From NCBI GenBank assembly GCA_009746045.1, contig RPFO01002047.1, forward strand, positions 1-64,000: a stretch of 64,000 bases of DNA, read 5' to 3'. Within the stretch, counting starts at the first letter, position 1. Each line of letters starts with the position of its first letter. Below are positions 2,933-28,878 of this stretch, piece by piece. The notes under the pieces were generated by a model. The model was not told the origin of the DNA and did not search any database. It saw only the letters and a program-made list of their open reading frames with translations. Made by a program: the position numbers and the translations under genes. Source of the DNA: Mesostigma viride (taxonomy: Eukaryota > Streptophyta > Mesostigmatophyceae > Mesostigmatales > Mesostigmataceae).

Positions 2933-3074
2933 TGTCGCGTCTGCGTGCCACAATCTCCGGCGCCACCATGGCGGCTGGCCACTCAGCTTAATTTGGTAAA
3001 ACCCAAATGAGCTGAGCTGACGTGCCTGCCTTAACTGCATGCCCTGTGGGGTGGGCGAGGACCTGTCCCATGAT
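2933..3074 (-). repeat. Terminal repeat segment 'X', outer copy (142 bp)
   Basis: Identical by eye to 4328-4469 in the same orientation. It forms the extreme 3' end of the integrated gypsy element, ends (minus strand) in GCGACA and abuts the target duplication. No copy of X exists at the other end of the element. Confidence 0.85.
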
Positions 3075-4325
3075 TAATGAAAAGAGGGCTCTCAGCCGAG
3101 GACAAGGAACTGTCCCTCGTGCCTGATGACCACCTTCTTGATCCCCTTGTGTACCGTCGCGTGCCGCGTTTGAATATCCTTGCTGGGGCGTTAGCTAGAC
3201 GCTCCAACTACTCTAATTGCGACAATATGATGGTGCAAGAGGGTGCTTTTGCCTCCCCTGCTATAGAACAATGCTTTCACAACACACACTTTGCACAGTC
3301 TGATGATGAAGCCGCACATGCGGAATTTATTGAGAAAGTTAATACAATTACAACACGTTGATAGTCTCAATATCGATGCACTCCATGCTCACGAGCCCGC
3401 AGTTAGGCAGCGCTCCATGACATGCTACCGGCCTTGCTCCCAAGGAAAGGGAGAAACACGAAGGCCACTAACGAGAGACTCGAAGAGACTACACGCTGCG
3501 TGAGAGTCCTCTTCGACTATGAACCAAACCATTCGTCATGCCACACGCATGACACACGCCACACTTGTCAGTCCAGCCAGGAATGCCAAAACTATCTTGC
3601 TGCCTGAACCATGCAAATAGAAACCGCATTCCAGTTGCCGTCCTGGCTTTCTACCACACATGCCAACAAAAGCAGGAAGGCATCCCGACAAATCTAAATT
3701 GCTACCCTGTTGCCGATCTCATCTCCTAGAGGCTCCGGCATTTCTGTCCCTGGGAATGTCCGACATTGAGTCACGTCCAGCAAGGTCGAAGCATAATATC
3801 CTTCAGACAATCTGCACGCTCACACCTTGCGTGTGAGTGGCCCAGCAAACATTGCGTCTAATCGTTCCTTTCTAGAAGAAATCCCTTTGTAGGGCTGCCA
3901 GCGATTTCGCATTCATTCCAGCGATCTGGCTCCGCACCGCAAATTGTCCTTTTCCATTTTCTGTCCAGTCCTCATAACGTTGACCCGCTATTCTACACCA
4001 CAAAGACACCTGGCCTGTCAATAGCCTCGGCGCTGTTGAAGTCCAGCAGTCCAGCTTCAGCTCCAGCTGTCCACTAACACGCGTATGATCCTCTCGACGC
4101 TGCGCACTTGTGCTGCCGTCCGCTCAAGTCAGTGCTGCGCGCCCAGCTGTGCCTGGCCCGGCGCGCGTGCACGTACACTTTCGTCCGCTCTTATGCTGCA
4201 AGTGCTAGTGTCCCCCCCGGTCACTAGCCTTTGTCGAAAATGCGTAGAAAACAAATTCCTTGCGCACGTCACCGGTCTTGTGCATAGTGGGCGCCGCCCG
4301 GATGACATAGCTCGCGTCCGTGACA
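3075..4325 (-). repeat. Long terminal repeat core, 3' copy (1251 bp)
   Basis: Near-identical to 27623-28878. Differences seen: a 4-bp gap near 3545, one base in a C run near 4214, and two substitutions. It is flanked on both sides by segment X, which makes the order B1-A2-B2 at this end. It also contains the 13-nt putative self-primer sequence (3479-3491). ORFs in it, such as 3077-3361, are duplicated with the repeat and are not taken as genes. Confidence 0.85.
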
Positions 4326-4496: not shown

Positions 4497-7400
4497 TCAC
4501 GAAGACAGCGATCGTACCAAGACAAGGGCAGCGGTGACCGCAGTCAAGCTGCGGGAGGTAAACTGCGCAGCGGTGCACACTGGACAAAACCAATCCCCCT
4601 CCGGAATGCTGGTGACCACTGGCTGCAAGCACTGCATGTGCCAACCACAGTTACACTGATCACACAATAACATGGACTCCGCCTGATCGACCCGGTGACA
4701 AACCTGACACTGGGCGTCCTTGACTCGGCGAGACGTGTGCGGTTGGAGGTCGTGGACCAAATTGGGCAGCGAGCAGGGACTGAGATTGCTGAGGTTGTCA
4801 GTCGTACGGCTCCCGTCGGCGCCCTCCAAAATTGCCACTCCCGATGGTTTGATAGCCACAATGCGCAAAATGGTGGGCCCCGCCTCCACATCCAAAGTGT
4901 GCTTCAGCTGAGTGCGCAGGAAAACATACTGCCCTGGCCTAAACCGCAGCTGGCGAGCCATGTATGCGCCCCCCCGGCGCTGAGCGTAACGCAGGGAGTC
5001 CCTGTGCTGAGCAATGAACAAGTTGTTCATCGCGATGGGCATGACCTTCTTAAAAGTCTCTGCCCTGGCCAGCACCTCAACCAAAAATTGCTGAGCGTTG
5101 TCGAAGGCCATGGGTTCGGGGTGCGCAACCTGTGCCTCCGTAGGCAAAAGAGGATTACGCCCGAACAGAAGGAAATACGGGGAGAAGGTAGCGAGAGACT
5201 CCTGGGGAGACATGCGATAACCCATGGCAATCCATGCCAACTCGCGATCCCACCTGGCCGACTCCGGCACCTGCAGGCTCCACTTGCGCAGCGCCTGCTT
5301 GACGGTCTGCACCAATCTCTCAGCCAAACCATTGGCCTGAGGATGCTCCCGAGAAGTGCGACGGTGATCAATAAGACATCCATCCAGCAACTCCTGGAAC
5401 TCACCCCTGAACTCACCACCCTGGTCCGTGACTACCTCCGCGGGAGCCCCAAACCTGGTGATGATGTCTGCAAAATGCTTCGCTGTGGTAGCGGCATGCT
5501 TGTCAGCAATGGGGATCAACTCAACCCATTTGCTAAAGCTCTCCACGCATACCATGACATAGAGGTTGCCGTCAGGGCTCTCCTGAAACGGCCCGCACAG
5601 ATCGACGTGCCAGCGATAAAACAAGCCCTTGATGGGAAGCGACATCAGCTCCTTGGCACCATGATCTGCGCTAAAGTTAGCCTTGGTTCGAGCACACGGG
5701 ACACAGCTGGCCACTACCTGGGCCACTGTGTGTCGCATGTTATTCCACCAATAGCTGGTCCGTACGAGGCTGAGCGTGCGATTGCCACCCAAGTGACCAT
5801 ACCGCTCGTGGTACGCCTGCACTATAGCAACGCGCTTGTCAGGCGGTGGGACGACCACCCTACGCTTGCCCAACAGCTTGTACAAAACCCCATCTTCCCA
5901 ACCATAGGTTGCAGCCCTGTGCTGCACCCTGTTCAACTCCGTCGCCTTCTGAGCAGGAGTCCAATCGACTGGAGTAGGAGTCAAGACAGCACCCTGCACT
6001 TGCTCCAAAACTCGACCATCTAGCCAGATATCAGCGGTGTAGCAATCAGCAAGAGAGCTACGCGCTAAGAGAGCCTGCACAGCGATCAGCTGCTGCAGAG
6101 AAGGATCAATGTCAAAGGACAGAGACCTACCCTCTTCCATAGCGCACACAGCTTTGGATGGCGTGAATGGCGACGGCCGCACCGGGTCGTCGCTGATGCC
6201 GAAGTCCGCCACAGAGTACTCGACACTGCGCCACCACGCCTCCTCCTCATCGTCGGCCGCATACCCAGCAGCGTTCACAAAGACCACAGAACCAGACGAG
6301 CCCTCGGCACCCATGGCCCGGGCTCCAGTGTGGTCAACAGTGGTAGGCATGGCGTATCGGGATAGCACATCGGCGTTGACATGGTCCTTGCCGGCCCGAT
6401 GCACAATGGTCATGTGGTACTCCTGGATAATCATGGCCCATCGGGCGAGCTTACCCGTCAGGTTGGTGTTGGTCATTAGCCACTGAAGCGGCTGGTGGTC
6501 TGTCACCAGAGTAAACACGCGCCCAAATAAATACGGGCGAAAGTGCTTGATGGCCCACACCACAGCCAGTGCCTCCCCCTCATAGGAAGAATACCGGCTC
6601 TCCGCTGGGTTGTTGCTGCGACTAGCATAAGCAATAACGTGCTCGCGCCCATCACCATCCTTTTGCGCCAAGACCGCACCCAGTCCTACCTTGGACCAGT
6701 CGGTATATAACACAAATGGCAAAGCATAGTCAGGGGCGCGCAGAATCGGTGCCGACGTGAGCTCCTGCTTGATTGTCTCGATGGCGCGTTGCTGTGCGGG
6801 ACCCCACGCCCACACGCACCCCTTCTTGAGTAACTCGGTCAAGGGCTTCACCTTGCTGCTGAAGTTCTCAATGTAACCTCGGTAATAGCCAGCCAAACCC
6901 AAATACGCCCGCACCCCTGAGACATCCGTGGGTACGGCGGCCTGCGCAATGGATTCGACCTTGGCGGCATCAGGCGTCCGGCCACCCGGCACAATCTGAT
7001 GACCAAGGAATGAGAGGGTCCGCTGGGCGAACTTGCACTTCTCAGGGTGCAGCCGCATATTATGCTCCTCGAGAGCCAAGCGAACCTGCTCCAAGTGCGC
7101 CAGGTGCTCCTCAAATGTCGCGCTAAAGACGATTACATCATCAATGTAACAAGCGGCGAAAGGAAGACCTGCAAGCACTTTGTCCATAGCTCGTTGGAAA
7201 ACAGCACTAGCGTTGCGGTGCCCAAAGGGCATGCGCACCCACTCATACAAATTGCCGCCCCCCAGAATGCAAGCTTCCGCTGATCCTCCGGCGCAACTGC
7301 GATCTGATGAAAGCCGCTACGCAGGTCCAGCGAGGACACAAACTTCACATGAGGAGATATCTTATCCAGGACATCATCCACACGTGGCATGGGGTAACGG

Positions 7401-8033
7401 TCCACGGGTGTGTGTGCATTCAGCAACCGCAGATCGGTGGCCATGCGCATACCCGTCCATGCCCCGGTGATAGCGTCCTTCTTGGGCGCAACGACAACGG
7501 CAGCAGCATAGCTGGAGGAAGATTGCCTGATGATACCGGCATCCTCTAACTCCTTGCATTGCTCGGCTACAAAATCCAACTCGGCCTGACTCAGGCGATG
7601 CTGGCGTCGGAACAAAGGAGTGTCAGTGTCCAATGGAACACGCATGGTCCCACCATTGAAACACCCCAGTTCATCACTTGTGAAAGCGAAGGCCCCCCTT
7701 GCAGTGCCTAGCCACTTTAGCATGGCTGAGCGCTGCGCATCAGAAAGGTGTTCGCCAATAGCCCAGGGGTGCGTATCCGCGGGATCACCCACAGCTACCG
7801 CATGTGCCTCAAGATGCGGCGCCCTAGCCGCATCGTCGTGGAACAAGGAAAAGGCTGCCACACCTGGTGTGACACCCACCGCCGGAGCCTCGCGTGCCGC
7901 CGGTGTATTACCCGATGCAGCGTGGGCTCGCCGGCCAGCACGGTGCTGGTCAGCAGGGCGGTCATGAGAATGATAGTCCACACCTGTCGCAGACGCCACC
8001 CCCATGCTGATGAAGTCCCCGTCGCTGCAGGGC
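4497..8033 (-). pseudogene. pol: Pol: reverse transcriptase, RNase H, DDE integrase and C-terminal PHD finger; one frameshift
   Basis: Two minus-strand frames (to about 7262, then 7250-4497) make one pol. The RT has 'FVSSLDLRSGFHQI' with the first catalytic Asp, then 'RMPFGHRNASAVFQRAMD', then the YIDD box 'ACYIDDVIVFSA'. RNase H follows with 'LYTDWSKVGLGAVLAQ' and a conserved Glu. The integrase has an HHCC zinc domain (YHERYGHLGG ... CVPCAR) and a DDE core ('WHVDLCGPF', 'VVTDQGGEF', 'HPQANGLAE'). After an SH3-like IN tail comes a PHD finger of C4HC3 type (CQVCHRV ... LLCDQC ... WHMQCL ... WFCPVC) where many chromoviruses carry a chromodomain. The frame breaks in a six-G run near 7262, and RT motifs continue across it. 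The start is uncertain: the RT frame is -1 relative to the upstream methyltransferase frame and is open back past 8033, so it may be translated by frameshifting. Integrase and PHD would act in the nucleus, RT and RNase H in the particle. Confidence 0.92.
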
Positions 8034-8036
8034 GCT
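8034..8036. other. Target-site duplication GCT of transposon A, left copy
   Basis: GCT precedes CCCTAGGCACACC at 8037 and recurs at 15511-15513 directly after the right terminus. Confidence 0.75.
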
Positions 8037-8154
8037 CCCTAGGCACACCTGGAATTGTACTACAACACAAGTACAAATTGACTTTTTTTCAACTTTGTTA
8101 TTTTGTACCTCCCTTAGGTCCAAAGCTAGGAGGTAAGTGTCTCATCATGTTTTG

Positions 8155-8880
8155 ACACCGGCACACCGGCACACCGGCACACCGGCACACCGGCACACCG
8201 GCACACCATAAAACTACCATTTTATGATTTTGTATGGTGTCACAAGGTAACCTAACGTCCAATACTAATGTTTAGGGTTTAGAAGCACTGCCTAACGTGG
8301 TGTGCCACTGTGCCACCGGCACACCGGCACACCGGCACACCGGCACACCGGCACACCGGCACACCGGCACACCATGCCACCATAAAACTACCATTTTATG
8401 ATTTTGTATGGTGTCACAAGGTAACCTAACGTCCAATACTAATGTTATAATGTCCACAAGCACTGCCTAACGTGGGGTGCCACTGTGCCACCGGCACACC
8501 GGCACACCGGCACACCGGCACACCATGCCACCATAAAACTACCACTTTATGATTTTGTATGGTGTCACAAGGTAACCTAACGTCCAATACTAATGTTATA
8601 ATGTCCACAAGCACTGCCTAACGTGGGGTGCCACTGTGCCACCGTGCCACCGTGCCACCGTGCCACCATGCCACCATAAAACTACCATTTTATGATTTTG
8701 TATGGTGTCACGAGGTAACATAACGTCCAATACTAATGTTATATTGCCCACAAGCACTGCCCAACGTGGGGTGCCACTGTGCCACCGTGCCACCGTGCCA
8801 CCGTGCCACCGTGCCACCGTGCCACCGTGCCACCGTGCCACCGTGCCACCGTGCCACCGTGCCACCGTGCCACCGTGACA
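8155..8880. repeat. Subterminal composite minisatellite of element A
   Basis: Blocks of 8-bp units (GGCACACC, then GTGCCACC) alternate with four copies of a ~100-bp spacer containing TTTTGTATGGTGTCAC and AACGTCCAATACTAATG. The unit changes from GGCACACC to GTGCCACC from left to right. Related spacers appear, inverted, at 23158-23905 in element B. Confidence 0.9.
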
Positions 8881-9028
8881 TTTCTTGACACACGCATCAC
8901 TCCGAAAACCCATTTTCTTCCCCTGGAAATTATTTGGAGAAGGAATAATTAATGGTCAGTTTGACCTCTAATATCTTATGATGCCATGTGGTCCAAAAAA
9001 TTTTGGGGAGTCGGCAGCATGGTAACAT

Positions 9029-10690
9029 GGTGACATTTGCTAGCAAAAAATACCGTATTTTCAGCACTTTCTGGCATGTATGCATATATAAAGACATCAA
9101 ATGAACTCAGTTGGGCCTGGGACTTTGCACATGTTCTAAACACATCCCATGCAGCATGCACACAAAGTTTCAGGCTGGTTGGATGACAAATAGGTGACAA
9201 ATGCTAGCATAAATACCCCAAATGCAGTTTTTCTTGGTTTTTCAAGGGTTTTATCACACATATGCATACATAATGACACCAATAGAGCTCAGTTGGAGCT
9301 GGAACTTTGCAATGTTGTAAACACATCCCAAGCAGCATGCACACAAAGTTTCAGGCTGGTTGGATGACAAATAGGTGACAAATGCTAGCATAAATACCCC
9401 CCAAATGCAGTTTTTCTTGGTTTTTCAAGGGTTTTATCACACATATGCATACATAATGACTCCAAATGAACTCAGTTGGGCCTGGGACTTTGCACATGTT
9501 GTAAACACATTCAATGCAGCATGCCCACAAAGTTTCAGGCTGGTTGGATGACAAATAGGTGACAAATGCTAGCATAAATACCCCCCAAATGCAGTTTTTC
9601 TTGGTTTTCCAAGGGTTTTATCACACATATGCATACATAATGACTCCAAATGAACTCAGTTGGGCCTGGGACTTTGCACATGTTGTAAACACATCCCAAG
9701 CAGCATGCCCACCAAGTTTCAGGCTGGTTGGATGACAAATAGGTGACAAATGCTAGCATAAATACCCCCCAAATGCAGTTTTTCTTGGTTTTTCAAGGGT
9801 TTTATCACACATATGCATACATAATGACTCCAAATGAACTCAGTTGGGCCTGGGACTTTGCACATGTTGTAAACACATCCCAAGCAGCATGCCCACAAAG
9901 TTTCAGGCTGGTTGGATGACAAATAGGTGACAAATGCTAGCATAAACACCCCCCAAATGCAGTTTTTCTTGGTTTTTCAAGGGTTTTATCACACATATGC
10001 ATACATAATGACTCCAAATGAACTCAGTTGGGCCTGGGACTTTGCACATGTTGTAAACACATTCAATGCAGCATGCCCACAAAGTTTCAGGCTGGTTGGA
10101 TGACAAATAGGTGACAAATGCTAGCATAAATACCCCCAAATGCAGTTTTTCTTGGTTTTTCAAGGGTTTTATCACACATATGCATACATAATGACACCAA
10201 TAGAGCTCAGTTGGAGCTGGAACTTTGCAATGTTGTAAACACATCCCAAGCAGCATGCCACAAAGTTTCAGGCTGGTTGGATGACAAATAGGTGACAAAT
10301 GCTAGCATAAATACCCCCCAAATGCAGTTTTTCTTGGTTTTCCAAGGGTTTTATCACACATATGCATACATAATGACTCCAAATGAACTCAGTTGGGCCT
10401 GGGACTTTGCACATGTTGTAAACACATCCCAAGCAGCATGCCCACAAAGTTTCAGGCTGGTTGGATGACAAATAGGTGACAAATGCTAGCATAAATACCC
10501 CCCAAATGCAGTTTTTCTTGGTTTTCCAAGGGTTCCAACACATGGGTGCCTATATCAATGAACTCAGTTAAGCCTAGAAAATTGCACAGCTCATAAAAAC
10601 ATCTATGTTAACTGCCCACAAGAAATTCAGACTGTTTGCATGACAAATAGGTGACAGATGCTAGCAAACATAGCACAAAAATGGCAGTTC
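9029..10690. repeat. 184-bp tandem satellite in element A, about nine copies
   Basis: A unit containing GCTGGTTGGATGACAAATAG and TGCAGTTTTTCTTGGTTTT recurs about every 184 bp (near 9172, 9355, 9538, 9722, 9906, 10090, 10270, 10455). The outer copies are diverged and the middle ones near-identical. The repeated minus-strand ORFs of ~74 residues are a by-product of the array. Confidence 0.9.
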
Positions 10691-10904
10691 CTAGTAATTG
10701 TTTTTCGTGGGTTTCATCCCATAGTTGAATGTCAACCCTTCCAGTTTGGGATATATAGTCAGGTTCCCAACAACACATCTAGATGATATATTATGTGATA
10801 TTGCAGGAAGGCAGACTTAGGGGCACACGCCCATGATACAACGTCAACATGTACATCAACAACACACACGTAACTTAGCTAATCATCATAATAAAAAGCA
10901 CACC
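10691..10904. other. AT-rich spacer without visible features
   Basis: Unique sequence between the satellite and the microsatellite block. No ORF or motif was recognised. Confidence 0.4.
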
Positions 10905-11102
10905 TTCCCCACCCACCCACCCACCCACCCACCCACCCACCCACCCACCCACCCACCCACCCACCCACCCACCCACCCACCCACCCACCCACCCACCCAC
11001 CCACCCACCCCCACCCACCCACCCACCCACCCACCCACCCACCCACCCACCCCACCCACCCACCCACCCACCCACCCACCCACCCACCCACCCATATAAC
11101 CA

Positions 11103-11134
<32 letters not shown>

Positions 11135-11147
11135 CACTGCCACGCAT

Positions 11148-11243
<96 letters not shown>

Positions 11244-11352
11244 GCACACACACAGTCATGCCTTCCCTCCCTCCCTCCCTCCCTCCCTCCCTCCCTCCCT
11301 CCCTCCCTCCCTCCCTCCCTCCCTCCCTCCCTCCCTCCCTCCCTCCCTCCCT
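10905..11352. repeat. Three abutting tetranucleotide tracts: (CCCA)n, (CGCA)n, (CCCT)n
   Basis: (CCCA)n at 10905-11094 is followed by (CGCA)n at 11101-11242 and (CCCT)n at 11262-11352. The C-rich strand is the same throughout. A similar train with the order (CCCT), (CCCA), (CACT/CGCA) occurs in element B at 19155-20487. Confidence 0.95.
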
Positions 11353-11574
11353 TCCCCCATCATTCATGCATCCGTTCATTCATGCATGCATCCACTCGTT
11401 CATTAACATGCCTCCGTTGGTCAGGGGTTCAAAATGATGCAACAGACACCAGAAAAGGGAGAAGGAGCCGCCTCCCCAACGTGCCGCCCGGCGACGGCAG
11501 CGATGGGCCTAGGGGGGTAACGGTGCGCTTTGTCTTGTTCGCCGGGGTGCGCCGGCGGGGTGCGGGCACTTAAA

Positions 11575-11735
11575 TTCAGGAGCAATAGCACAAGCAATGT
11601 CATGATTCCAAACGCCAAGAACTGCACTTATTGTAATATTCCTTTGGTAAAATGCAATTCAAGAGCAATAGCGCAAGCAATGTCATGATTCCAAACGCCA
11701 AGAACTGCACTTATTGTAATATACCTTTAGTAAAA
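11575..11735. repeat. Tandem duplication of ~80 bp
   Basis: Two nearly identical copies contain GCAATGTCATGATTCCAAAC and CTGCACTTATTGTAATAT, separated by about 80 bp. Confidence 0.85.
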
Positions 11736-11755
11736 TAACAGCCGGATTTCCCCTG

Positions 11756-12040
11756 TCATAAATTTACCTCAGATTTCCCAGTGACACGGTCGGCTTCATC
11801 ATCCGAAGCACCAGAGGCAAGTATTCTCTCAAGTTCATTCACTGCGCCCCTGTGATACACGGCCGCTTGCATTTTCTTCCTTTCTTCATCATCTACACCT
11901 GTCACGGATACAGGGCCTGTATCCTTTGTCTGGTTCTCTTGCCCCGGTGGTTCATGGCCGGGATCCATTGTGTCTGGTGGGGCTACTGCGTCCTTTTCCA
12001 TCGCTGGTGCTTTCCGATATCCCCTACATGTAAAGACCAA
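11756..12040 (-). CDS. Small hypothetical ORF, 94 residues, in element A
   Basis: An open minus-strand frame with a hydrophilic, acidic composition (EKDAVAPPDTMDPGHEPPG, DDEERKKMQAAVYHRGAVNE). It resembles a fragment of a disordered nuclear or gag-like protein rather than a folded enzyme. Its start overlaps the end of a palindromic MITE, so the first dozen residues may come from the MITE. No family recognised. It could be a captured exon or chance. Confidence 0.25.
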   Translation of the reverse strand: MVFTCRGYRKAPAMEKDAVAPPDTMDPGHEPPGQENQTKDTGPVSVTGVDDEERKKMQAAVYHRGAVNELERILASGASDDEADRVTGKSEVNL

Positions 12041-12451
12041 ATGGTGGTGGCACGGAGTACAAAATTAATGGTGGTGGCACGCCGCCATTGTTGTTGTTGT
12101 TGTTGTGTCCCACGCCGCACACCGGTGGAGTACAATTTGGTGGTGGCACGGTGTGCCGGTGTGCCGGTGTGCCGGTGTGCCGGTGTGCCGGTGTGCCGGC
12201 CAGTGATTGGCCCGTTGCTGATTTTCTGATATGCAGCCTAGTAAAAATTGGCCGCAAATCTTGTGCCCACGTGCGACCGGACGAATTTGCGGCCAATTTT
12301 TATTAGGCTGCATGTCAGCAAATCAGCAACGGGCCAATCACTGGCCGGCACACCGGCACACCGGCACACCGGCACACCGGCACACCGGCACACCGGCACA
12401 CCACCAAATTGTACTCCAGAATGCCCGATGGTCTTTACATGTAGGGGATAA
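12021..12451. mobile_element. Palindromic MITE with minisatellite arms, probable TA duplication
   Basis: The left end reads TATCCCCTACATGTAAAGAC, and the right end is its inverted copy. Inside, a second inverted pair (GGCCAGTGATTGGCCCGTTG and complement, with AATTTGCGGCCAATTTTTA) surrounds 8-bp GGTGTGCC arrays. TA lies on both outer sides, as in Tc1/mariner-type MITEs. Similarity also runs past the ends (CCATCGCTGGTGCTT on both flanks, inverted), so the true boundary may be a few tens of bp wider. It can fold into a long hairpin. Confidence 0.6.
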
Positions 12452-12509
12452 TGAACCAGCGATGGAAGCACCAGCGATGGAAGCGATTATGAGGATTTGT
12501 TTATATTAA

Positions 12510-14402
12510 GGGACGGTCCCGGCGCGAATATTTTTGGCGCCGAAAAATTCGCGGTACCCGTCCGTACCGTGAAAAAGTGGTGCACGGTGCGCGCACCCCT
12601 ACCGGAGCTGGCCATGGCGACGTGCTTTCAGGCAGAGTAGAAAAAGATAGCTCGCGGAATGCAGAGAAACTGAGCGAATCTTAAAGACGATGAGTAAATG
12701 ATACTACTTCGTAGCGGAGTTCGCGTTTTTTGCAGTGTCGATGATTTTATTGATGACCATCGCCACGGGGGTCCAATCTGATGTTTTCGTCGAGAGGAAT
12801 AAATTAGAATGCACGCTGGCGGCGGTGATTGTCAGGTTTTATGGGCTTTACCTAGCGTCAAGGATGCGTTTAAATTGTTATTGGTAAAGATTTAAAAAAT
12901 TTGCTGGGTTTCGGCAAGATTTCCGTCATGATCGGTAAGACACTCTCCAGGCTCGCGGGATGCGCGTCTTATTATTCCATGGAAGGTTGTTCTTTCTTGC
13001 GCCGCTGGGCGAAGGACAATGCCGGTAATGGTACGATCGTGTGATCAACGTGACCCTATGAATGTTTCGCTTCCTTGATGGGTTATCAACGCAAGTTTTC
13101 GGCTTTTTTCCGTGCAGTTAGCGCCAGGTATAATGCCATTCCGTGCTGCGCATCGCCAGATTCCTGGCACCTTTCAGTGGTTTTTATGTACGTTGCATGG
13201 CTGGGACGTGTCAAAGCGCGACCGTGGCATATCGTCAAGTTGTCAGGGATTTGCTGAGTGGTTTCTTGGAAGGAGATTGCTAACAGCACTCAGTTTTGTG
13301 TGAATATTGACGCGGCCTTTCTTAGCAGAGGCTTCATTGTGGTTAGAGGCTCACAAGCTTGAGTTTCTTTCTTGCCAAACAATTGCGCTGGAAAGAAAGG
13401 TGGCAGTGGTTTTTCTGAGGGGCATACTGCATGGGTGGAACTGCACGTAGGTAGGGGTTATGGTTGTCTTGTCGGCCTTTCTCCCACTAAAATGGGAGAG
13501 CCCTAATTCATATGCTGGCAAGGCAAGGTAACCATGGTGAGAAGCCTTGGCAATCAGCATGTATGACAATTCTGCTTTCTCTGTGGACTGTCTGTTGTTA
13601 CCCTTGTTGGGCAATTAGTGGATATGGCTTTCTAGGGTGTGTTTGAGCTTGGTTTTGGGATGATGCCCACACCATAAACCTGGAATATGCTTTAGAAGTG
13701 TCGGCTAGGCATGTAGAGCTACCTGCCTCATTGTTGTGCACACACGCAACAGGTTGCCCGTGTCAAGGTAAGGCAAGGGCACATGACGTGCCCAGCCACC
13801 TCCTTGTACATTGTGGTCGAATTGGGCATGGTCAGGAGCCTTTTGGATGGCATAGGAAGTGTTAGTGTGCCTTAATACTCACTAATGCCTTCCTTAGCGT
13901 CTGCACAGGTGGCCAACTGCCAAAATTAATAACTGCTACAGCTGAGCTCAGAATGCCACCAAACTTTGGTAGTGCCTTCTATGGTCATGACAGAATTCGA
14001 CTATTACTTTTTAGGCCTAATTGATGTGTTATGAGTGTGTATGGGGGCGCCCCGCCTAAAAAAGCGTATTTTTGGCCCAAAAATTAATAACTCAAAGGGA
14101 TGTGCTGATTTTGTTGATCCAATTAGGTAGAAACCATGTCCCATGACATTTTTATATGGGTATTACTTTTTTCATGCAACTGGTTCTCCCACTGGTCTGG
14201 GCAAGATGTGCCCCGGACAGCGTTTTTTTCTATTTTTAGCTCATAGCCGGTGTATGGCTGCGGGTAGTACCCCCAACAAGTGGTGGTATGCATGCCCAAA
14301 CATCATGTTTATGGTCCCCAAACATCATTCAGTGGTTGTCAGTTGCATTTCTGTAGTTATTAGGGGGCTTCAGTTTTGATACAATTCCATGGGACCCTCC
14401 CC
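12510..14402. mobile_element. Transposon D: 1.9-kb TTAA-targeting non-autonomous element
   Basis: The left end is GGGACGGTCCC and the right end (inverted) GGGGAGGGTCCC. TTAA flanks both sides (12506-12509, 14403-14406). Element B holds the homologous unoccupied sequence, with one TTAA, at 21715-21718. The first ~130 bp match the right end of element C inverted (GCGCGAATATTTT, TACCGTGAAAA, CCATGGCGAC), and a CACTTGTTGGGGGTACTACC block near the other end is also shared. No transposase ORF is present. TTAA duplication is typical of piggyBac-type elements, but the GGG termini differ from the usual CCC. Confidence 0.8.
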
Positions 14403-14405
14403 TTA

Positions 14406-14592
14406 AAATCTGGAAAGTTGCTAAAAATAGACATGCCAAAAATAGACCAACCGATGTCGGAAAATTCTGGAAAGTCAAATTCCTTCTACTGGTGTCCTGG
14501 ACATGCTGCCTACCAATATCTAGCATGTTTGGACTCAATTTGCTCCATGTAGGGCTTATAAGGGCATTTTTTGGCACTTTCATACCGTTGTG
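14406..14592 (+). repeat. Internal segment shared with element B (21718-21900)
   Basis: Both copies contain AAATCTGGAAA, GCTAAAAATAGA, CCTTCTACTGGTGTCCTG, ATCTAGCATGTTT and TTTTTTGGCACTTTCA in the same order and both on the plus strand. In element A the copy directly follows the TTAA of element D. Confidence 0.85.
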
Positions 14593-14596
14593 GAGG

Positions 14597-15390
14597 TGGC
14601 ACGGTGGCACGGTGGCACGGTGGCACGGTGGCACGGTGGCACGGTGGCACGGTGGCACGGTGGCACGGTGGCACGGTGGCACGGTGGCACGGTGGCACGG
14701 TGTCATGAGCATGTCTAGGTAACCCTTGCATGACCCATTACCCTTGATAAATCCCAATGGATAACCATTGTATGTGCAAATATGTGTGTTTATATGCAAC
14801 TTTTGAGGTGGCACAGTGGCACGGTGGCACGGTGGCACGATGCCACGGTGCCATGGTGTACGTCATGAGCATCTAGGTAACCCTTGCATGACCCATCCAC
14901 CTACATAAAACCCATGGATAACAATTGCATGTGCAAAGGTGTGTGTTTATATGCAATTTGAGGTGCAACGGTGTGCCGGTGTGCCGGTGTGCCGGTGTGC
15001 CGGTGTGCCGGTGTGCCGGTGTGCCGGTGTGCCGGTGTGCCGGTGTGCCGGTGGCACGGTGGCACGATGCCACGATGCAACGGTGTCATGAGCATGTCTA
15101 GGTAACCCTTGCATGACCCATTACCCTTGATAAATCCCAATGGATAACCATTGTATGTGCAAATATGTGTGTTTATATGCAACTTTTGAGGTGGCACGGT
15201 GGCACGGTGGCACGGTGGCACGATGCCACGGTGCCACGGTGTCATGAGCATCTAGGTAACCCTTGCATGACCCATCCACCTACATAAATCCCATGGATAA
15301 CAATTGCATGTGCAAAGGTGTGTGCATACATGCAATTTGAGGTGTGCCGGTGTGCCGGTGTGCCGGTGTGCCGGTGTGCCGGTGTGCCGG
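14597..15390. repeat. Right subterminal minisatellites of element A
   Basis: Arrays of GGTGGCAC (14597-14703, 14805-14850, 15188-15240) and GGTGTGCC (14970-15050, 15340-15390) are separated by a repeated ~110-bp spacer with AACCCTTGCATGACCCAT and ATATGCAATTTGAGGTG. The spacers match, inverted, those just inside the left end of element B. Confidence 0.9.
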
Positions 15391-15510
15391 CCGCCGACGA
15401 ACTTTTTTTTCCTCAAAGACTTTAGTTGAAACTTTAAATGCATGAAAATGCAACTTTCAAAACTGAAGTACAATTTGAAAAATGTAGTACAATTCCAGGT
15501 GTGCTTAGGG

Positions 15511-15513
15511 GCT
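15511..15513. other. Target-site duplication GCT of transposon A, right copy
   Basis: Directly follows ...GCTTAGGG at the right terminus of A and matches 8034-8036. Confidence 0.75.
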
Positions 15514-16699
15514 TCAGTTTGGCTGCGCTCGCCTCAACCTGCTGAGGCGGATTGGCTGGGGACGCCCCCCCAGACTGGCGCACGGCAACCGATGCAAGCA
15601 GCACATACCCGACCTGCAACACCGACATAGCCTGGCCTATCAAAGACCAGCGCTCACTCTCGAGCACGCCCGGCAGCGCCGAGGCCCCGACATGAAAACC
15701 CATGCTGGCCTCACGAAATTCTGCGGGTGGCTGCACCAACAGACCGGTGGTAGTGTCCCAAACGAGACCCTTACCCCGATCACGGTATGCTGTCGACCCT
15801 TGGTAACTGACCAGGGTCGGCAGTGCACACATGGGGCTCCCGACCCGGTTGACGCGTGCATATGGTGGGCGATCCTCGCTATCCACCTTCTGCGTGACTA
15901 GGTGGGAAGGCAATGCTACCTCCGCAGACACACTCGGATGCTGCCTTGCGACGGCCCCTAAGACCGCCTGCACACCGGTCGCACACGCCACGTTGGTCCA
16001 ATAGGCACGCAAACGATGCGTGAGCCCACCCAGCCCTGCGTTGTCACACACGATGGGCTCCCCCAGGAGTGCCACGATTGTAGCCCAGTCCTCCCGCACC
16101 GCCTGATGTGGGCTGTCACCCGCCACAACGTTCTCAAACAGATACGCAGGCGGATGGGGCTGACGCGACTGCAACAGTCCCACCACACGCAACAGTTCCC
16201 AGAACAGCGCGCTACGCGGATCAGCTAGCCCCCGCCCTTGCCCTGCCTGGCTCAGGCCCTGGCACTCCCAACCCGCAATTACCAAGTCGATGGCATGATG
16301 CCTGCGCAACAACTGCTGCACCTGCACCTCACCGATGGCTCTGATATCTTGAGGACATTCCCCAAACGGGTCACGCCATGCTGATGGCGGAAACTGCGCG
16401 GGATACTCTCGCGACAACACGCCACAGTGACTGAAGTACACCTGACGCGCCTTGTGCGATGGCTCTACCGCGATGAGTTTACGGCACACGCCGCCTGCGG
16501 CCAAAAAGCCTGCAATGCCCCCTCCGATCCCCGCAAACAGTTCCAACACTACCGCACCCTTGGCAAAATCAGGGGCCTGCGGTAAGATTGCAGCAGAAAA
16601 ATTACCTTGGGCCTCCAAGACACCCGGTTGCACCAAAGTGAGGCCATGGCTGGCCATCTGAGGAATGGTGATGACGGCTTCAGTCACCCGCTTGCGCAT
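15511..16699 (-). CDS. C5 cytosine DNA methyltransferase domain of the gypsy polyprotein
   Basis: About 395 residues read on the minus strand. Motif I is 'VLELFAGIGGGIAGFLAAGG' (SAM binding). The catalytic motif IV is 'AGWECQGLSQAGQG', with ECQ in place of the canonical PCQ but the nucleophilic Cys kept. Motif VI is 'LFENVV' (ENV Glu). The motif VIII region is 'LTHRLRAYWTN', motif IX 'FREASMGF', and motif X 'WSLIGQAMSVLQVGYV'. All blocks are in the usual order with no stop, so the domain looks catalytically complete. The upstream ATG (16699) is created at the transposon B junction. Excising B with one ATA duplication joins gag-protease ('RQLA') directly and in frame to 'MRKRVTEAV', so this is an internal polyprotein domain and not a separate gene. 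After 15511 the frame runs into transposon A. The likely role is methylation of CpG or other cytosines in the element's own DNA or host chromatin, by analogy with retrotransposon DNMTs described in charophytes and dinoflagellates. Confidence 0.93.
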
Positions 16700-16700
16700 A
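16698..16700. other. Target-site duplication ATA of transposon B, left copy
   Basis: Matches 24022-24024. Collapsing the pair restores the gag-methyltransferase frame. Confidence 0.8.
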
Positions 16701-16822
16701 CCCTAAGCTCGTCTGGATTTGTACTAGAACACGCAATTTGTAGTTCATTTTGAAAAGTTGTATTTTATTGAATTTAAAGTTTCCACTTAAGTCTCTGAGG
16801 AAGGGGAAGTTCATAGGACCCG

Positions 16823-17012
16823 TGACACCGTGACATCGTGACACCGTGACACCGTGACACCTCAAAATGCATATAAACACACATCTTTGCAGGTATGCAG
16901 TGATTATTAATGGGGATGATGTATTCAATGGGTCATTGCAAGTTTTACCTATGCTTCTGACACCGTGACACCGTGACACCGTGACACCGTGACACCGTGA
17001 CACCGTGACACC
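16823..17012. repeat. Left subterminal GTGACACC arrays of element B
   Basis: GTGACACC units at 16823-16860 and 16958-17012 flank a spacer with AAAATGCATATAAACACACA. The inverted homologue lies at the right end of A. Confidence 0.85.
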
Positions 17013-17294
17013 GCAAATACCACGTATACACCTTCATAATAATCCTAGTAGAGACATTCATTTCTCCATACATCTCGGTCATCTCACCATATATCGTCTC
17101 ATGTTGATGTATTCTTGTTGTGCGTGTAGGTACCTTGCCGGGTCATGACAAGTTCAGCCATTCCTCGTTTATGCGGTCCAACGTCGCTTCAATAGGGCAT
17201 GTGATTAATATCTGGTAACAACTTATATATGTTGGCACGCCATGCGTCCAGGAATAGCTGTCTCACTTAATATGCATGCAAGCAACCATCAAAA
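17013..17294. other. Unique sequence without visible gene
   Basis: No ORF of note and no repeat recognised. It separates the subterminal array from the small TM-containing ORF. Confidence 0.3.
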
Positions 17295-19145: not shown

Positions 19146-19149
19146 CGAT

Positions 19150-20294: not shown

Positions 20295-20338
<44 letters not shown>

Positions 20339-20960: not shown

Positions 20961-20963
20961 GAG

Positions 20964-23157: not shown

Positions 23158-23905
23158 TGCTGTCACGGTGTCACAATGTCACGATGTCACGGTGTCACAA
23201 TGTCACCTCATGTTAATCAGTGCTTCTGGGCAATGTAATATCATTGTTGCAACCCCATGGGCGCCACATTACCTTGTGACACCATACAAAATCGTAAAAT
23301 ACTAGCGTTATGGTGCCATCGTGTCACGGTGTCACGGTGTCACGGTGTCACGGTGTCACGGTGTCACGGTGTCACGGTGTCACGGTGTCACAATGTCACC
23401 TCATGTTAATCAGTGCTTCTGGGCAATGTAATATCATTGTTGCAACCCCATGGGCGCCACATTACCTTGTGACACCATACAAAATCGTAAAATACTAGCG
23501 TTATGGTGCCATCGTGTCACGGTGTCACGGTGTCACGGTGTCACGGTGTCACGGTGTCACGGTGTCACGGTGTCACGGTGTCACAATGTCACCTCATGTT
23601 AATCAGTGCTTCTGGGCAATGTAATATCATTGTTGCAACCCCATGGGCGCCACATTACCTTGTGACACCATACAAAATCGTAAAATACTAGCGTTATGGT
23701 GCCATCGTGTCACGGTGTCACGGTGTCACGGTGTCACAATGTCACCTCATGTTAATCAGTGCTTCTGGGCAATGTAATATCATTGTTGCAACCCCATGGG
23801 CGCCACATTACCTTGTGACACCATACAAAATCGTAAAATACTAGCGTTATGGTGTCACGGTGTCACGGTGTCACGGTGTCACGGTGTCACGGTGTCACGG
23901 TGTCA
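23158..23905. repeat. Right subterminal composite minisatellite of element B
   Basis: Blocks of the 8-bp unit GGTGTCAC alternate with four near-identical copies of a spacer containing TTAATCAGTGCTTCTGGGCA and CCTTGTGACACCATACAAAA (higher-order period about 130-193 bp). It is homologous, inverted, to 8155-8880. Confidence 0.9.
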
Positions 23906-24021
23906 CAACATGTTGGGACAATAACCTACATGCTTTGGACTTACGAGAGGCCCTAAATAACAAAGTTTGAAAAATCTCAATTTGTAGTAGTGTTCTAGTA
24001 CAAATCCAGACGAGCTTAGGG

Positions 24022-24024
24022 ATA
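24022..24024. other. Target-site duplication ATA of transposon B, right copy
   Basis: Directly follows ...GAGCTTAGGG and matches 16698-16700. Confidence 0.8.
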
Positions 24025-27000
24025 GCCAGCTGCCGCGTGGACGTCACAGCATCCAGCGACCACTGCGTGCGCATCTTGGCAATGCTCGCCGTTGGCTGAG
24101 GCAGCACCGTCCGATGCTTGTCCCACGCCGATGAGCCCGCCGCCCGTACCTCCACCATGCTGACCTCCACCACGCCCGCAGCCGCTGAAGGGTTGGGGCG
24201 TGCAGCCCCGGCTGAAGAACTGAAGCATGAGACTGGCACACTGGCCCGCTTCAGGCCAGCCCCATCCCAATCAGGGATGTAAGATGCCTCCTCCGCCCTA
24301 TAGTCCACCTGAACCATGGCGCGAGCAAGGACATCCACCCCGAGTAGTGCGGAATATCCACACTTGTTGACCACCAGCGCATACGCGGACACGGTGGTCA
24401 TGCTAGAGGCGCGCAACGGATTGAAAATCACGTTGACTTTAACCGCCGTCATAGCGTACGGCTTACTAGCCGGACCCTGCCAACCTGACACAGACACGGG
24501 GCTTTCTACTAAGCCACCGTTCTCGTAGGTCAGGTTCAGCATGGTGGCCAAGTCTGTGCTGATGACTAGCGGCTGAGCACCGCTATCAAGCTTGACTGCG
24601 CCAACCAACGGACATGTCACCATGTCGCTCCATACATCTCCACAGGCTCCAACTGCTTGGAACGCTATGGACGGCTCACCATTGGGGTATGGAACTACCG
24701 TGGGAACCTGGGGAACTGCCCTAGTGCGCTGCTGGCTACTTGTGCTGACCACTCCCGCTTGCACCACGGGCACTGCGGCTTCTACCGGCTGACGCCCGTA
24801 GGTGACGGACTCAGAATTGCGCAAGGTGCGCACATCATGCCCATCTGCGAACAACTGGATCTCGGACACAACCGACCCCAGCCACTCAACCCCCTTCTGC
24901 CCGAAGGTGTCGACCACCTGCCGTGCTGAAAACATGGGTACGTCCACAATGAACGGCATTGGGTACACAGGCGCCAATCGCCTACGCTGCTCCAGCCCAG
25001 CAGGGTTCGCATGCTCAAAAGCAGATTGCACCCCAGCCAGCGGCATGGAAAAGGACGCGGGCAACTGCCCGGCAGGCAACATGGGTGCCTGCTGAAAAGA
25101 AAGCGGGCTGCGTGCCTGCTTGCCTTTGGTAGCCTCCGCAGCGTTGATCTCGACGTCACCCGGCATGGGCGCCCAGAATGGGTCCTCCCGGTACACCGTC
25201 GCGAATTGGTTGGGGGGCGCCGTCGCCTCCTCACCATGCTTGATGGCAGCCACCTGGGCTTCCATCGAGTCGGTCTTGCCCGCCATCTCGGCGAAGTGGA
25301 CCGTCTTGATGCCCGCGGCTGGACACTTGTTCATCAGGTGCCACTTCGTGTCTGCCCCATGCGGCTTCGTGCAGCGGCTTGGACACTCGCGACTAAGGTG
25401 CCCATCCTTGTCGCAAAGGTAACATTTACCGCGTGACGGGGTGGGTGCGCCCAGCGCGCCTTGCACGCCCTGCGCCTCCTGAGTCCCATCCGATGACGGC
25501 GGACGACCGCCTCCGCCTCGACCACCACCGCGACCCCGACCACCGTAGCCACTGCCGCCGCCACCACGACTGACACCGCCACTGCCACCCTGACCGCCAC
25601 CGCCGCTGCCACCCTGACCGCCACCGCCGCTGCCCCCGTGACCGGCGTTGCCACCACCCTGAGTGCCGACATATTCACCGCGCCCCGCACCAGGCAGCCG
25701 CTGGCCACCCTTGACCGCGATGGCCTTCTCCATCTCAGCCATCTTCTTGCGCATCTCAGCCAGCTCAGACGAGATACCCTTCTCGCCTTCCGCACGCTTC
25801 CTGAGCAGCCGCTTGAATGCTGCACAGAGAGTCACCAAAGTCCACTCCCCACCGGGTGGCTCCGGAAGATCGATGGCCAGCAGGGGCACTGCACTCCGCC
25901 ATAACCGGCAAGCCTTGGTCTGCGTATAATCAGGCACTTTGCCCGCAAACGCGAGAAGCCGGTCAAGGGAGAAAGCCGGATCCTCACCCTCGGCGACGGT
26001 GAACGCTCCATTCCATTCCGCGATGGCCTTGACGTGCTCAACTGGGTACTCCAGCCGCAGTTGCTGCCACAGCTGCTCTGCCGGGTCGACATCGAAGATG
26101 ATCGAGTCGAGATCCGGTGTGCCCATGTCCGTGAGCGCAAACCATATGTCCGTGCGATGACATCGGTCCACAAGCGCTCGGTAATGCTGGACCAAAACCT
26201 GGACCTTCTTCTTGGTCAGGTCATGGAAAAAAAGGTGAATAAAATCCATCACCATCTCATGGCGAAGAGGATACCCCGAGGCATAACGATAAGTGTTACA
26301 ATGAGCTCGGAAGAGCTCATAGGCTTCCTCTAAAGTCGCACCCGTGCCTGCTGAGGTGAACTTCTCGCGAAGCTCCACCTTGGGCAGCGATGGCACACGA
26401 GTGGATTCGCCATGCACGCCGTATGGCATGCGGTGGGGTCGCTGGACGTCGTCGCCCTCACCCCATGGTATGCTGGCTACCTCCCGATCGACTTGGCCCC
26501 AGCCGAAGTCTGACCGAGTGCCGCCAAGCCTGGGCCGCCCTGCGGTGCCACCCAACGGCGTTGCTGCCGCCGTCATGGGTGGCCGACCTGTGCTAAACAA
26601 GCCACCTGATGCTCCCCCCCTGGGGGCTGCACCATACCCGCCGCGCCACGATAACGTGCCTTGGTTGGGTGCCCGTAGGTTCCCCCCCAGCGTATAAGAT
26701 GCGTCGGCAGTCGACCGGGTGCCTACCCGACCGACGTTCGGCTGCAGCTCGTCATCCTGCGCCATTTCCCCGTCGCCCCGCCGTTGACCGCTTGGTCCGA
26801 CGCGTGGCTGACTGGGCTCAACGTTGCGTAGTGGACCTGTCCCACTGCGCTCTTCGTCGAAGTGTCCGCGTTGGTCACGCAGCGCCTCATGTCGCCGCGC
26901 TTCCTCGGCAGCGGCCTCCTCGTCGGCAGCCTGCCTGGCCTCGGCGTCGCGTTGGGCCGCAGCTTGGCAGGCGCGTGCAGCTTCCGTGGTTGCCTCCTCC

Positions 27001-27476
27001 TGCCGCCGTTGCTCAGCGCGCTCCGTAGCACGCCTCGCTTCAGCCGTAGATTCCGCGCGCTCCAAAGCAAGTCGCACAGTTTCTTCAACAAGCGTCGCCT
27101 GTTGCGATAACTGCGTCGCTTGCTGAGCTCGGAGTGCCGCCAGCTCTGCCGCTTGCTCTTGCAGCAGGCGCAGCACTTGGGTAAGAGCACCACCGTCCCC
27201 TGCCGAAGAAAGGGAAGGCGCTCCATTACCTAACAAAGCGGTGTCCGCACTAGTGCCGAGACGACCGCTGGGCGGGTCAGTTGCTTGACCGCCCGTAGCT
27301 GCCGGCGCTGACCCACCACTGCCTGATGCTGTGGGGTCAGTTCCTGACATGTTGATGGTGGTATCGACCCTGGAGAGCTCCTGCCCGTCGGTGTCGACGC
27401 CCGTGTTGGCACAGCCTGCGTGGCTTGCCAAAAACGCTGTGACCGACCTAGTGTGATATGACATAAACTGCCACAA
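24022..27476 (-). CDS. gag: Gag and aspartic protease part of the gypsy polyprotein
   Basis: About 1150 residues on the minus strand; the likely start is MSGTDPTASG near 27350 or the upstream Met at 27476. Order: a disordered N-terminus, an Ala/Glu/Arg-rich coiled coil (~residues 100-200, 'RATERAEQRRQEEATTEAAR'), a capsid-like helical core (~370-560), a Gly-rich linker ('GGGGQGGSGGGG', ~640), a CCHC zinc knuckle 'CYLCDKDGHLSREC' near 682-695, and a retropepsin with the active site 'LDSGAQPLVIS' near 962. The ORF then runs into transposon B; the last ~40 codons of the open frame (to 23895) are transposon sequence. Without B it continues in frame into the methyltransferase. The product would coat and package the genomic RNA and process the polyprotein. 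Confidence 0.92.
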
Positions 27477-27609: not shown

Positions 27610-27622
27610 TAGTCTCTTCGAG
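27610..27622 (-). promoter_or_regulatory. Putative primer-binding site, self-complementary to the LTR
   Basis: The minus strand reads CTCGAAGAGACTA, starting at the first base after the LTR core. It is a perfect 13-nt reverse complement of a sequence inside the same LTR (28027-28039). It does not look like the usual tRNA-type TGG start. This matches the logic of Tf1-type self-priming, in which the 5' end of the transcript folds back onto the primer-binding site. Confidence 0.6.
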
Positions 27623-28878
27623 TAATGAAAAGAGGGCTCTCAGCCGAGGACAAGGAACTGTCCCTCGTGCCTGATGACCACCTTCTTGATCCCCTTGTGT
27701 ACCGTCGCGTGCCGCGTTTGAATATCCTTGCTGGGGCGTTAGCTAGACGCTCCAACTACTCTAATTGCGACAATATGATGGTGCAAGAGGGTGCTTTTGC
27801 CTCCCCTGCTATAGAACAATGCTTTCACAACACACACTTTGCACAGTCTGATGATGAAGCCGCACATGCGGAATTTATTGAGAAAGTTAATACAATTACA
27901 ACACGTTGATAGTCTCAATATCGATGCACTCCATGCTCACGAGCCCGCAGTTAGGCAGCGCTCCATGACATGCTACCGGCCTTGCTCCCAAGGAAAGGGA
28001 GAAACACGAAGGCCACTAACGAGAGACTCGAAGAGACTACACGCTGCGTGAGAGTCCTCTTCGACTATGAACCAAACCATTCGTCATGCATGCCACACGC
28101 ATGACACACGCCACACTTGTCAGTCCAGCCAGGAATGCCAAAACTATCTTGCTGCCTGAACCATGCAAATAGAAACCGCATTCCAGTTGCCGTCCTGGCT
28201 TTCTACCACACATGCCAACAAAAGCAGGAAGGCATCCCGACAAATCTAAATTGCTACCCTGTTGCCGATCTCATCTCCTAGAGGCTCCGGCATTTCTGTC
28301 CCTGGGAATGTCCGACATTGAGTCACGTCCAGCAAGGTCGAAGCATAATATCCTTCAGACAATCTGCACGCTCACACCTTGCGTGTGAGTGGCCCAGCAA
28401 ACATTGCGTCTAATCGTTCCTTTCTAGAAGAAATCCCTTTGTAGGGCTGCCAGCGATTTCGCATTCATTCCAGCGATCTGGCTCCGCACCGCAAATTGTC
28501 CTTTTTCATTTTCTGTCCAGTCCTCATAACGTTGACCCGCTATTCTACACCACAAAGACACCTGGCCTGTCAATAGCCTCGGCGCTGTTGAAGTCCAGCA
28601 GTCCAGCTTCAGCTCCAGCTGTCCACTAACACGCGTATGATCCTCTCGACGCTGCGCACTTGTGCTGCCGTCCGCTCAAGTCAGTGCTGCGCGCCCAGCT
28701 GTGCCTGGCCCGGCGCGCATGCACGTACACTTTCGTCCGCTCTTATGCTGCAAGTGCTAGTGTCCCCCCCCGGTCACTAGCCTTTGTCGAAAATGCGTAG
28801 AAAACAAATTCCTTGCGCACGTCACCGGTCTTGTGCATAGTGGGCGCCGCCCGGATGACATAGCTCGCGTCCGTGACA
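27623..28878 (-). repeat. Long terminal repeat core, 5' copy (1256 bp), lacking segment X
   Basis: Near-identical to 3075-4325. It starts (minus strand) TGTCACGG at the element boundary and ends CTTTTCATTA at the primer-binding site. Segment X, which flanks the other copy on both sides, is absent from both flanks here. Confidence 0.85.
28027..28039 (-). promoter_or_regulatory. Putative self-primer sequence in the 5' LTR
   Basis: The minus strand reads TAGTCTCTTCGAG, which pairs with 27610-27622 over 13 nt. By the Tf1 precedent this would lie at or near the 5' end of the transcript, putting the start of R close to 28039 and giving a ~417-nt R-U5. No clear TATA box was seen just upstream. Confidence 0.5.

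What the first reader, a model, noticed from the sequence alone, without database searches (positions are those of the whole stretch)
15511..16699. A C5 DNA methyltransferase built into a Ty3/gypsy polyprotein between protease and RT
Seen: complete methyltransferase motifs (I, IV with ECQ, VI, VIII-X) lie between a gag/retropepsin ORF and an RT-RNaseH-integrase ORF, all on the minus strand inside one pair of terminal repeats. Collapsing transposon B and one ATA copy joins gag-protease to the methyltransferase in frame. Known: retrotransposons of charophytes and dinoflagellates have independently taken up DNMTs (de Mendoza and colleagues). Inference: this is a further case, perhaps independent, with the enzyme in an internal position. 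Such an element could methylate its own cDNA or its neighbourhood.
Basis: partly seen in the sequence, partly recalled or inferred. Interest (0 to 1): 0.9.

Follow-up and report, generated by a model that had tools for sequence, protein, structure and literature searches.

The report
Alga retrotransposon carrying a DNA methyltransferase
A jumping element of the green alga Mesostigma carries, inside its main protein, an enzyme of the kind that puts methyl marks on DNA, and about two hundred places in the genome show the same joint between that enzyme and the element's copying enzyme, which makes it a good case for asking why a genetic parasite would carry a marking enzyme.

Summary
A C5 cytosine methyltransferase (PF00145, E 2.6e-12) lies between protease and reverse transcriptase of a Ty3/gypsy element on the minus strand. 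Two 7.3-7.5 kb DNA transposons with their own target duplications flank it. They did not bring it: 9 of 9 other copies read at both sites show both sites empty, and one undisturbed copy (L030) has protease-MTase-RT-RNaseH-integrase-PHD in a single 2012-aa frame. Exact 31/32-mers of the MTase and of the uninterrupted MTase-RT joint occur 193 and 195 times in the genome (reversed control 0). The genome is Mesostigma viride NIES-296: one contig has exactly the published scaffold N50. A second family (MTase 62% identical) has the same MTase-RT order, so the fusion predates their split, and the MTase is under purifying constraint. None of the 50 best RT-integrase matches showed a clean protease-RT joint, but 14 fetched copies have a frame break inside the MTase. 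The kind is known (KnitGypsy-Dnmt3, SymbioDIRS-Dnmt3); host, canonical LTRs, PHD tail and an ECQ catalytic motif differ or may differ. Activity, target and independent origin are untested. Self-methylation of cDNA is the likeliest role, but inferred.

The parts
27620..28878 (-). 5' LTR (element on minus strand)
   Evidence: 99.4% identical direct copy of 3072-4325
23898..27476 (-). gag-protease reading frame; the part belonging to the retrotransposon ends at the duplicated ATA (24022-24024), the rest runs into transposon B
   Evidence: CCHC knuckle PF00098 1.6e-4 at about 25377-25430; retropepsin-like PF13650 weak (0.05, below cut-off), LDSGA motif; same layout in L030 and L031
16701..24021 (.). 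transposon B: DNA transposon with 3-bp TSD ATA (16698-16700 and 24022-24024), ends CCCTAAGCTCGTCTGG...; inserted between protease and MTase
   Evidence: 32 of 32 terminal bases identical between its ends; site empty in 9 of 9 other copies; 3 of its ORFs without a Pfam match at 0.01, a fourth with only sub-cut-off matches
15511..16700 (-). C5 cytosine methyltransferase domain of the polyprotein (motif I LFAGIGGG, IV WECQG, VI LFENV, VIII HRLRAYWTN, X-like WSLIGQAM); catalytic Cys codon about 16262-16264
   Evidence: PF00145 2.6e-12; phrog_116 4.8e-18; TIGR00675 9.7e-12, below its cut-off; profile best to DNMT3A 6.5e-6; conserved in a second family
8037..15510 (.). transposon A: DNA transposon with 3-bp TSD GCT (8034-8036 and 15511-15513), ends CCCTA(A/G)GCACACCTGG...; inserted between MTase and RT
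   Evidence: 27 of first 28 terminal bases identical between its ends; site empty in 9 of 9 other copies; 2 of its ORFs without a Pfam match at 0.01
7136..8036 (-). linker and N-terminal part of reverse transcriptase
   Evidence: PF00078 3.6e-4; pieces found next to the MTase in the other copies
4500..7250 (-). RT (C part), RNase H, integrase (H2C2 zinc, rve core) and C-terminal PHD finger (about 4575-4709)
   Evidence: PF00078 1.9e-19, PF17917 4e-39, PF17919 3.3e-36, PF17921 9.5e-17, PF00665 3.2e-11, PF00628 4.2e-9
3072..4325 (-). 3' LTR

Best explanation
This is one member, later interrupted by two DNA transposons, of a Ty3/gypsy LTR retrotransposon family of Mesostigma viride in which a C5 cytosine methyltransferase is a fixed domain of the polyprotein between protease and reverse transcriptase, and whose integrase ends in a PHD finger. 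Shown: the order, the single frame in an undisturbed copy, about 195 exact MTase-RT joints, a second family with the same MTase-RT order, and sequence constraint on the MTase. Inferred: the enzyme is made with Pol, enters the particle, is freed or kept tethered by the protease, and methylates the element's own double-stranded cDNA (probably at CG) before or during integration. The new copy would then arrive already carrying the host's CG mark, either escaping recognition as foreign DNA or settling into a tolerated chromatin state that the PHD finger may also help to select.
For: Single 2012-aa frame in L030. In 8 other copies (L003-L009, L030) the MTase is 99.0-99.5% identical, the RT-integrase pieces 98.6-100% and the protease pieces 90.4-99.6%. 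Empty sites in 9 of 9; 193 and 195 exact copies of MTase and MTase-RT 31/32-mers, controls 0; 31 of 105 scored MTase places share the 2074-aa open frame of L030. Second family L031: MTase dN 0.34 (core 0.28) against linker 0.58 and PR part 0.80, RT 0.20, dS saturated or nearly so; motifs I, IV-Cys, VI, VIII kept in both families. Precedent: retrotransposon DNMTs of the SymbioDIRS-Dnmt3 kind can methylate CG de novo (abstract and Discussion of PMC5890265). M. viride DNA carries 5mC, mostly CG.
Against: No activity, expression or methylation data over the copies were available. In the same precedent the tested SymbioLINE-Dnmt did not methylate DNA in yeast. Motif IV is ECQ in both families, not PCQ/PCN, so full activity is not assured. 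Of 20 copies fetched because no MTase had been listed, 14 have the MTase frame broken after motif VIII, so either the MTase is dispensable in cis, or that site is recoded, or the assembly errs there. CpG decay in two broken family II copies was too slight to read. The AlphaFold model was too poor to use (mean pLDDT 37.3).
Confidence: 0.55

Rival explanations
1. The MTase acts mainly on host DNA or chromatin in trans (around insertion sites or genome-wide) rather than on the element's cDNA, changing host silencing or marking preferred targets together with the PHD finger.
For: Integrase carries a PHD finger (PF00628 4.2e-9), a histone-tail reader by family; about 195 exact MTase-RT joints; de Mendoza et al. 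discuss host-wide effects in Symbiodinium.
Against: A domain inside Pol is expected to be packaged with RT; no localisation or expression evidence either way.
Confidence: 0.22
2. The domain is kept as a nucleic-acid-binding or structural part of Pol and is weakly active or inactive as an enzyme.
For: ECQ in place of PCQ/PCN in motif IV in both families; a subgroup with the MTase frame broken after motif VIII has at least 14 copies (three of them aligned).
Against: Catalytic Cys, ENV, motif I and motif VIII are kept across 37-39% amino-acid divergence; core dN is low (0.28).
Confidence: 0.2
3. The MTase reached this place inside transposon A or B (or a composite of both) and only looks like part of the polyprotein.
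For: Both transposons abut the MTase exactly.
Against: 9 of 9 other copies have both sites empty with MTase present; 195 uninterrupted MTase-RT joints; the two transposons have different ends and different target duplications.
Confidence: 0.01

Closest known systems
KnitGypsy-Dnmt3 of Klebsormidium nitens (PMC5890265; sections 6, 9, 11 read, abstract and passages seen)
   Same: Ty3/gypsy; cytosine MTase inside the Pol reading frame; purifying selection reported; also a streptophyte alga
   Different: There the repeats are arranged as in DIRS, here canonical direct LTRs; there the MTase is placed with Dnmt3, here only a weak best match to DNMT3A, DRM and HhaI. PHD tail and ECQ motif were seen here; whether KnitGypsy has them, and its domain order, is in figures and supplements that I could not see. 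The paper says K. nitens has fewer copies than Symbiodinium; here there are about 195 exact joints.
SymbioDIRS-Dnmt3 and SymbioLINE-Dnmt of Symbiodinium (same paper)
   Same: Retroelement-encoded cytosine MTase; in the DIRS case within Pol
   Different: DIRS (tyrosine recombinase) and LINE elements, not LTR elements with a DDE integrase; dinoflagellate host
Orchid Ty3/gypsy with m6A RNA demethylase domain (PMC9289625; search listing only)
   Same: Ty3/gypsy that took up a nucleic-acid-modifying enzyme
   Different: Different enzyme and host
Sola1-1_Ec32 DNA transposon of Ectocarpus with ParB and N4C/N6A methyltransferase domains, said to have likenesses in green and red algae (PMC12477816; passage seen)
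   Same: Algal transposable element with its own DNA methyltransferase
   Different: DNA transposon; different class of methyltransferase

Membership tests
Ty3/gypsy LTR retrotransposon | Pol order PR-RT-RNaseH-integrase with gag CCHC | tested here: met
   (protease only weakly detected by Pfam)
Ty3/gypsy LTR retrotransposon | direct LTRs of near identity | tested here: met
   no target duplication seen outside the LTRs by eye
Ty3/gypsy LTR retrotransposon | RT phylogeny within Ty3/gypsy | not tested
   no reference set; only Pfam matches
C5 cytosine methyltransferase (PF00145) | score above the curated cut-off and motifs I, VI, VIII | tested here: met
   47.3 bits against 22
C5 cytosine methyltransferase (PF00145) | canonical PC(Q/N) motif IV | tested here: not met
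   ECQ in families I and II: Cys kept, Pro replaced
Dnmt3 clade | branching with Dnmt3/DRM | tested here: inconclusive
   profile best to DNMT3A 6.5e-6, then a chain named DNA methyltransferase (4onj) 1.5e-5 and HhaI 4.5e-5; no tree possible
ChloroDNMT lineage (named in PMC12344493) | branching with the ChloroDNMTs of chlorophytes and charophytes | not tested
   no sequences reachable; passage seen
KnitGypsy-Dnmt3 | MTase in Pol ORF of a Gypsy element | tested here: met
KnitGypsy-Dnmt3 | DIRS-like arrangement of repeats | tested here: not met
   direct LTRs
EnSpm/CACTA (transposons A and B) | 3-bp target duplication and short inverted ends | tested here: met
EnSpm/CACTA (transposons A and B) | CACTA ends and transposase | tested here: not met
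   ends are CCCTA; no Pfam match at 0.01 in the 5 ORFs of A and B tried

The most novel reading that the evidence does not exclude
A separate, old capture: Mesostigma, of the earliest-diverging streptophyte algae, holds its own lineage of PHD-tailed Ty3 elements that took up a C5 methyltransferase of non-Dnmt3 (orphan, ECQ-type) origin before the two families seen here split, kept it under selection, and uses it to pre-mark cDNA so that new copies pass as resident DNA.
Probability: 0.22. Interest if true: 0.78.

Novelty: new variant of a known kind. Interest (0 to 1): 0.6.

Why it matters
DNA methylation is a host weapon against such elements, so an element that carries the enzyme itself turns the usual picture round. 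In the listings and passages seen here (with 15 of 147 listed, 127, 130) the cytosine-MTase retroelements named are those of Klebsormidium and dinoflagellates. Mesostigma belongs to the earliest-diverging streptophyte algae (abstract), has a sequenced genome with bisulfite and RNA data, and holds about 195 exact MTase-RT joints, in some copies with the MTase frame whole and in some broken. That allows a within-genome comparison that could show what the enzyme does for the element.

Tried and rejected
Rejected: MTase as cargo of transposon A or B. Origin in a virus of the IMG/VR set: no support; scans gave one distant MTase (L001, 31% over query residues 137-253), none with the two-family profile (two patterns), none with a GWECQG pattern, and none for RT-integrase. 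A bacterial near relative: none confirmed in GTDB contigs, but that scan used only two patterns outside the catalytic motifs, so it is a weak negative. No close host relative among those fetched: the MET1-like gene L034 gives no significant match and seven representatives of the HaeIII-like MTases (of L010-L029) match only locally at 23-37%. No Rfam match in the window. Cymbomonas was considered as the source organism and dropped (914.3 Mb, N50 38.7 kb). The structure model was unusable, so no fold search was made. CpG decay was uninformative. The RT 31-mer count and the PR-MTase joint count did not complete; nor were the searches for 18S rRNA (83, 85, 89, 91, 93, 95, 100, 102, 128) and PsaA/B (45, 52, 60, 64).

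Full report
What is there. On the minus strand of the window, between two 99.4% identical direct repeats (3072-4325 and 27620-28878), lie a gag-protease frame (CCHC knuckle; weak retropepsin match), a methyltransferase frame (PF00145 2.6e-12) and an RT-RNaseH-integrase frame that ends in a PHD finger. The LTRs differ by 3 substitutions and 2 gaps in 1259 columns, so the insertion is young. No target duplication is visible by eye just outside the LTRs, which I leave unexplained.

The two inserts. A (8037-15510) and B (16701-24021) have inverted ends (27 of the first 28 and 32 of 32 bases) and different 3-bp target duplications, GCT and ATA. In copies L003-L009, L030 and L035, 9 of 9, both sites are empty and the MTase is present between protease and RT. 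The MTase is therefore older than the inserts and part of the retrotransposon. The ATG that opens the MTase ORF overlaps the duplicated ATA and is an interior codon.

Undisturbed architecture. The copy L030 has LTR sequence on both sides, a 611-aa gag frame and one 2012-aa frame reading protease - MTase - RT - RNaseH - integrase - PHD. Its gag is only 35% identical to the window's gag over residues 299-639, while the protease part (residues 685-1150 of the gag-PR frame), MTase and RT-INT are 98.9, 99.0 and 99.8% identical, which suggests exchange between subfamilies. In the genome-wide protein search 105 of 528 candidates were scored; all 105 match the full 396 residues at 99-100% without internal stops; 31 of 105 have an open frame of exactly 2074 aa as at the L030 place and 36 of 105 one of at least 2000 aa. 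The exact 31-mer of the catalytic motif occurs 193 times and the exact 32-mer of the undisturbed MTase-RT joint 195 times, reversed controls 0. The matching count for RT could not be had.

Are there copies without it? The 50 best of 5258 RT-integrase candidates were listed. In 29 of 50 an MTase match lies upstream, in 28 of them at 785-787 bases. One is the window itself. The other 20 were fetched: 16 carry the MTase over 390 or more residues, with protease directly before it, 2 only its 3' part (L039, L054), and 2 none in the 2.8 kb looked at: L046 keeps element sequence only from the RT start, L055 is rearranged. So 0 of 50 show a clean protease-RT joint; the other candidates were not scored. 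Against a strict need for the enzyme, 14 of those 20 (a set chosen because no MTase had been listed, hence biased) have their MTase frame broken near residues 241-248, after motif VIII. Three of the 14 were aligned: L036 and L037 lack one base in a G5 run, L038 lacks that and one more. All 14 lie among the 21 rows with the top score of 2144 bits; of the other 29 rows 27 have a listed MTase without stops. That linkage speaks for a real subgroup, but a homopolymer error of the assembly is not excluded.

Second family. L031 has a gag-PR frame (968 aa) overlapping a 1637-aa frame MTase-RT-RNaseH-integrase-PHD. Its MTase is 62% and its RT-INT 73% identical to the window's. Compared with L030, MTase dN is 0.34 (core 0.28), RT-RH 0.20, INT 0.23, PHD end 0.34, linker 0.58, protease part 0.80 (53 codons only), with pS 0.66-0.90, saturated or nearly so, so dN/dS cannot be given as a number but is well below one for the MTase. 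Broken copies L032 and L033 also carry this MTase, in pieces. In the PF00145 scan 28 rows score like L031 (E 1.6e-9 to 4.8e-9); only L031 of these was read. The fusion predates the split of the two families.

The enzyme. Motifs I (LFAGIGGG / LFAGMGGG), IV (WECQG), VI (LFENV) and VIII (HRLRA[YF]WTN) are shared by both families, as is WSLIGQAM near the C end. The alignment to DNMT3A covers motifs IV to VIII. Naming of motifs, and the statement that PCQ/PCN is the usual form, are from general knowledge. The change to ECQ is unusual and leaves activity open. By profile the nearest solved chains are DNMT3A, 4onj (named DNA methyltransferase; recalled as a tobacco DRM) and HhaI with little to choose between them. 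Host gene L034 (DNA_methylase 4.3e-49, BAH 4.1e-7 just under its cut-off; 1.8e-227 to chains named DNMT1) is not a near relative. The structure prediction from two sequences failed.

Organism. G000 has 439,911,974 bases in 2243 contigs. The Mesostigma viride NIES-296 assembly has 441,847,188 bases, 2363 scaffolds and a scaffold N50 of 2,558,729 (section 6 of PMC6947507); contig C1646 of G000 is exactly 2,558,729 long. I take the identity as settled. That paper reports 5mC, mostly CG, in M. viride (section 14); its main text holds the word retrotransposon once (methods) and methyltransferase once, neither about a retroelement MTase.

Comparison with print. De Mendoza et al. 2018 (PMC5890265; abstract, sections 6, 9, 11 and passages) describe KnitGypsy-Dnmt3, SymbioDIRS-Dnmt3 and SymbioLINE-Dnmt, with Ka/Ks below 0.2 for the Klebsormidium domain and CG methylation by retroelement DNMTs; the word Mesostigma is not in the main text. 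A 2025 survey (PMC12344493, passages) repeats streptophytes and dinoflagellates as reported cases and does not hold the word Mesostigma. Searches (11 listed; 15 of 147 listed; 2; 0) showed no report of this element in their listings; subscription papers and supplements were not searchable.

How it probably works. Shown: the enzyme is encoded within Pol, in one frame with RT in an undisturbed copy and by open-frame length in many, and under constraint. Inferred: it is packaged, meets the cDNA, methylates it, and the marked cDNA integrates with the help of a PHD-tailed integrase. Rivals are action on host DNA, and a structural role without catalysis. I put the anatomical claim above 0.95, the cDNA role near 0.5.

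Verdict.

Noticed in passing
L010-L029, L057, L059 (small and some large contigs of G000): HaeIII-like C5 methyltransferase genes of about 300-360 aa recur: 10 rows with a 364-aa and 17 rows with a 313-aa open frame, several identical in sequence. They may be genes of another multicopy element, possibly endogenous viruses.
   Followed up: partly
window 4575-4709 (-): The integrase ends in a PHD finger (PF00628 4.2e-9), and the second family L031 has a matching C-terminal stretch; a possible chromatin reader in place of a chromodomain.
   Followed up: partly
L036-L038, L040, L041, L043-L045, L047-L052: A subgroup of at least 14 copies has the MTase frame broken after motif VIII, at a G run in the three aligned: dispensable domain, recoding site or assembly error.
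   Followed up: partly
L030:2094-3089 against window gag: Gag of L030 is only 35% identical to the window's gag while Pol is about 99% identical: recombination between subfamilies.
   Followed up: no
L031:5178-5352: gag-PR and MTase-RT frames of the second family overlap by 175 bases, which suggests a frameshift to make Pol.
   Followed up: no
window 8037-24021, 39700-42500, 45400-46700: The DNA transposons and the flanking region are packed with 8-bp to 184-bp minisatellites, with 76-81% complementary blocks shared between A and B.
   Followed up: no
window 3072 and 28878: No target-site duplication is visible outside the two LTRs, perhaps from recombination between elements.
   Followed up: no
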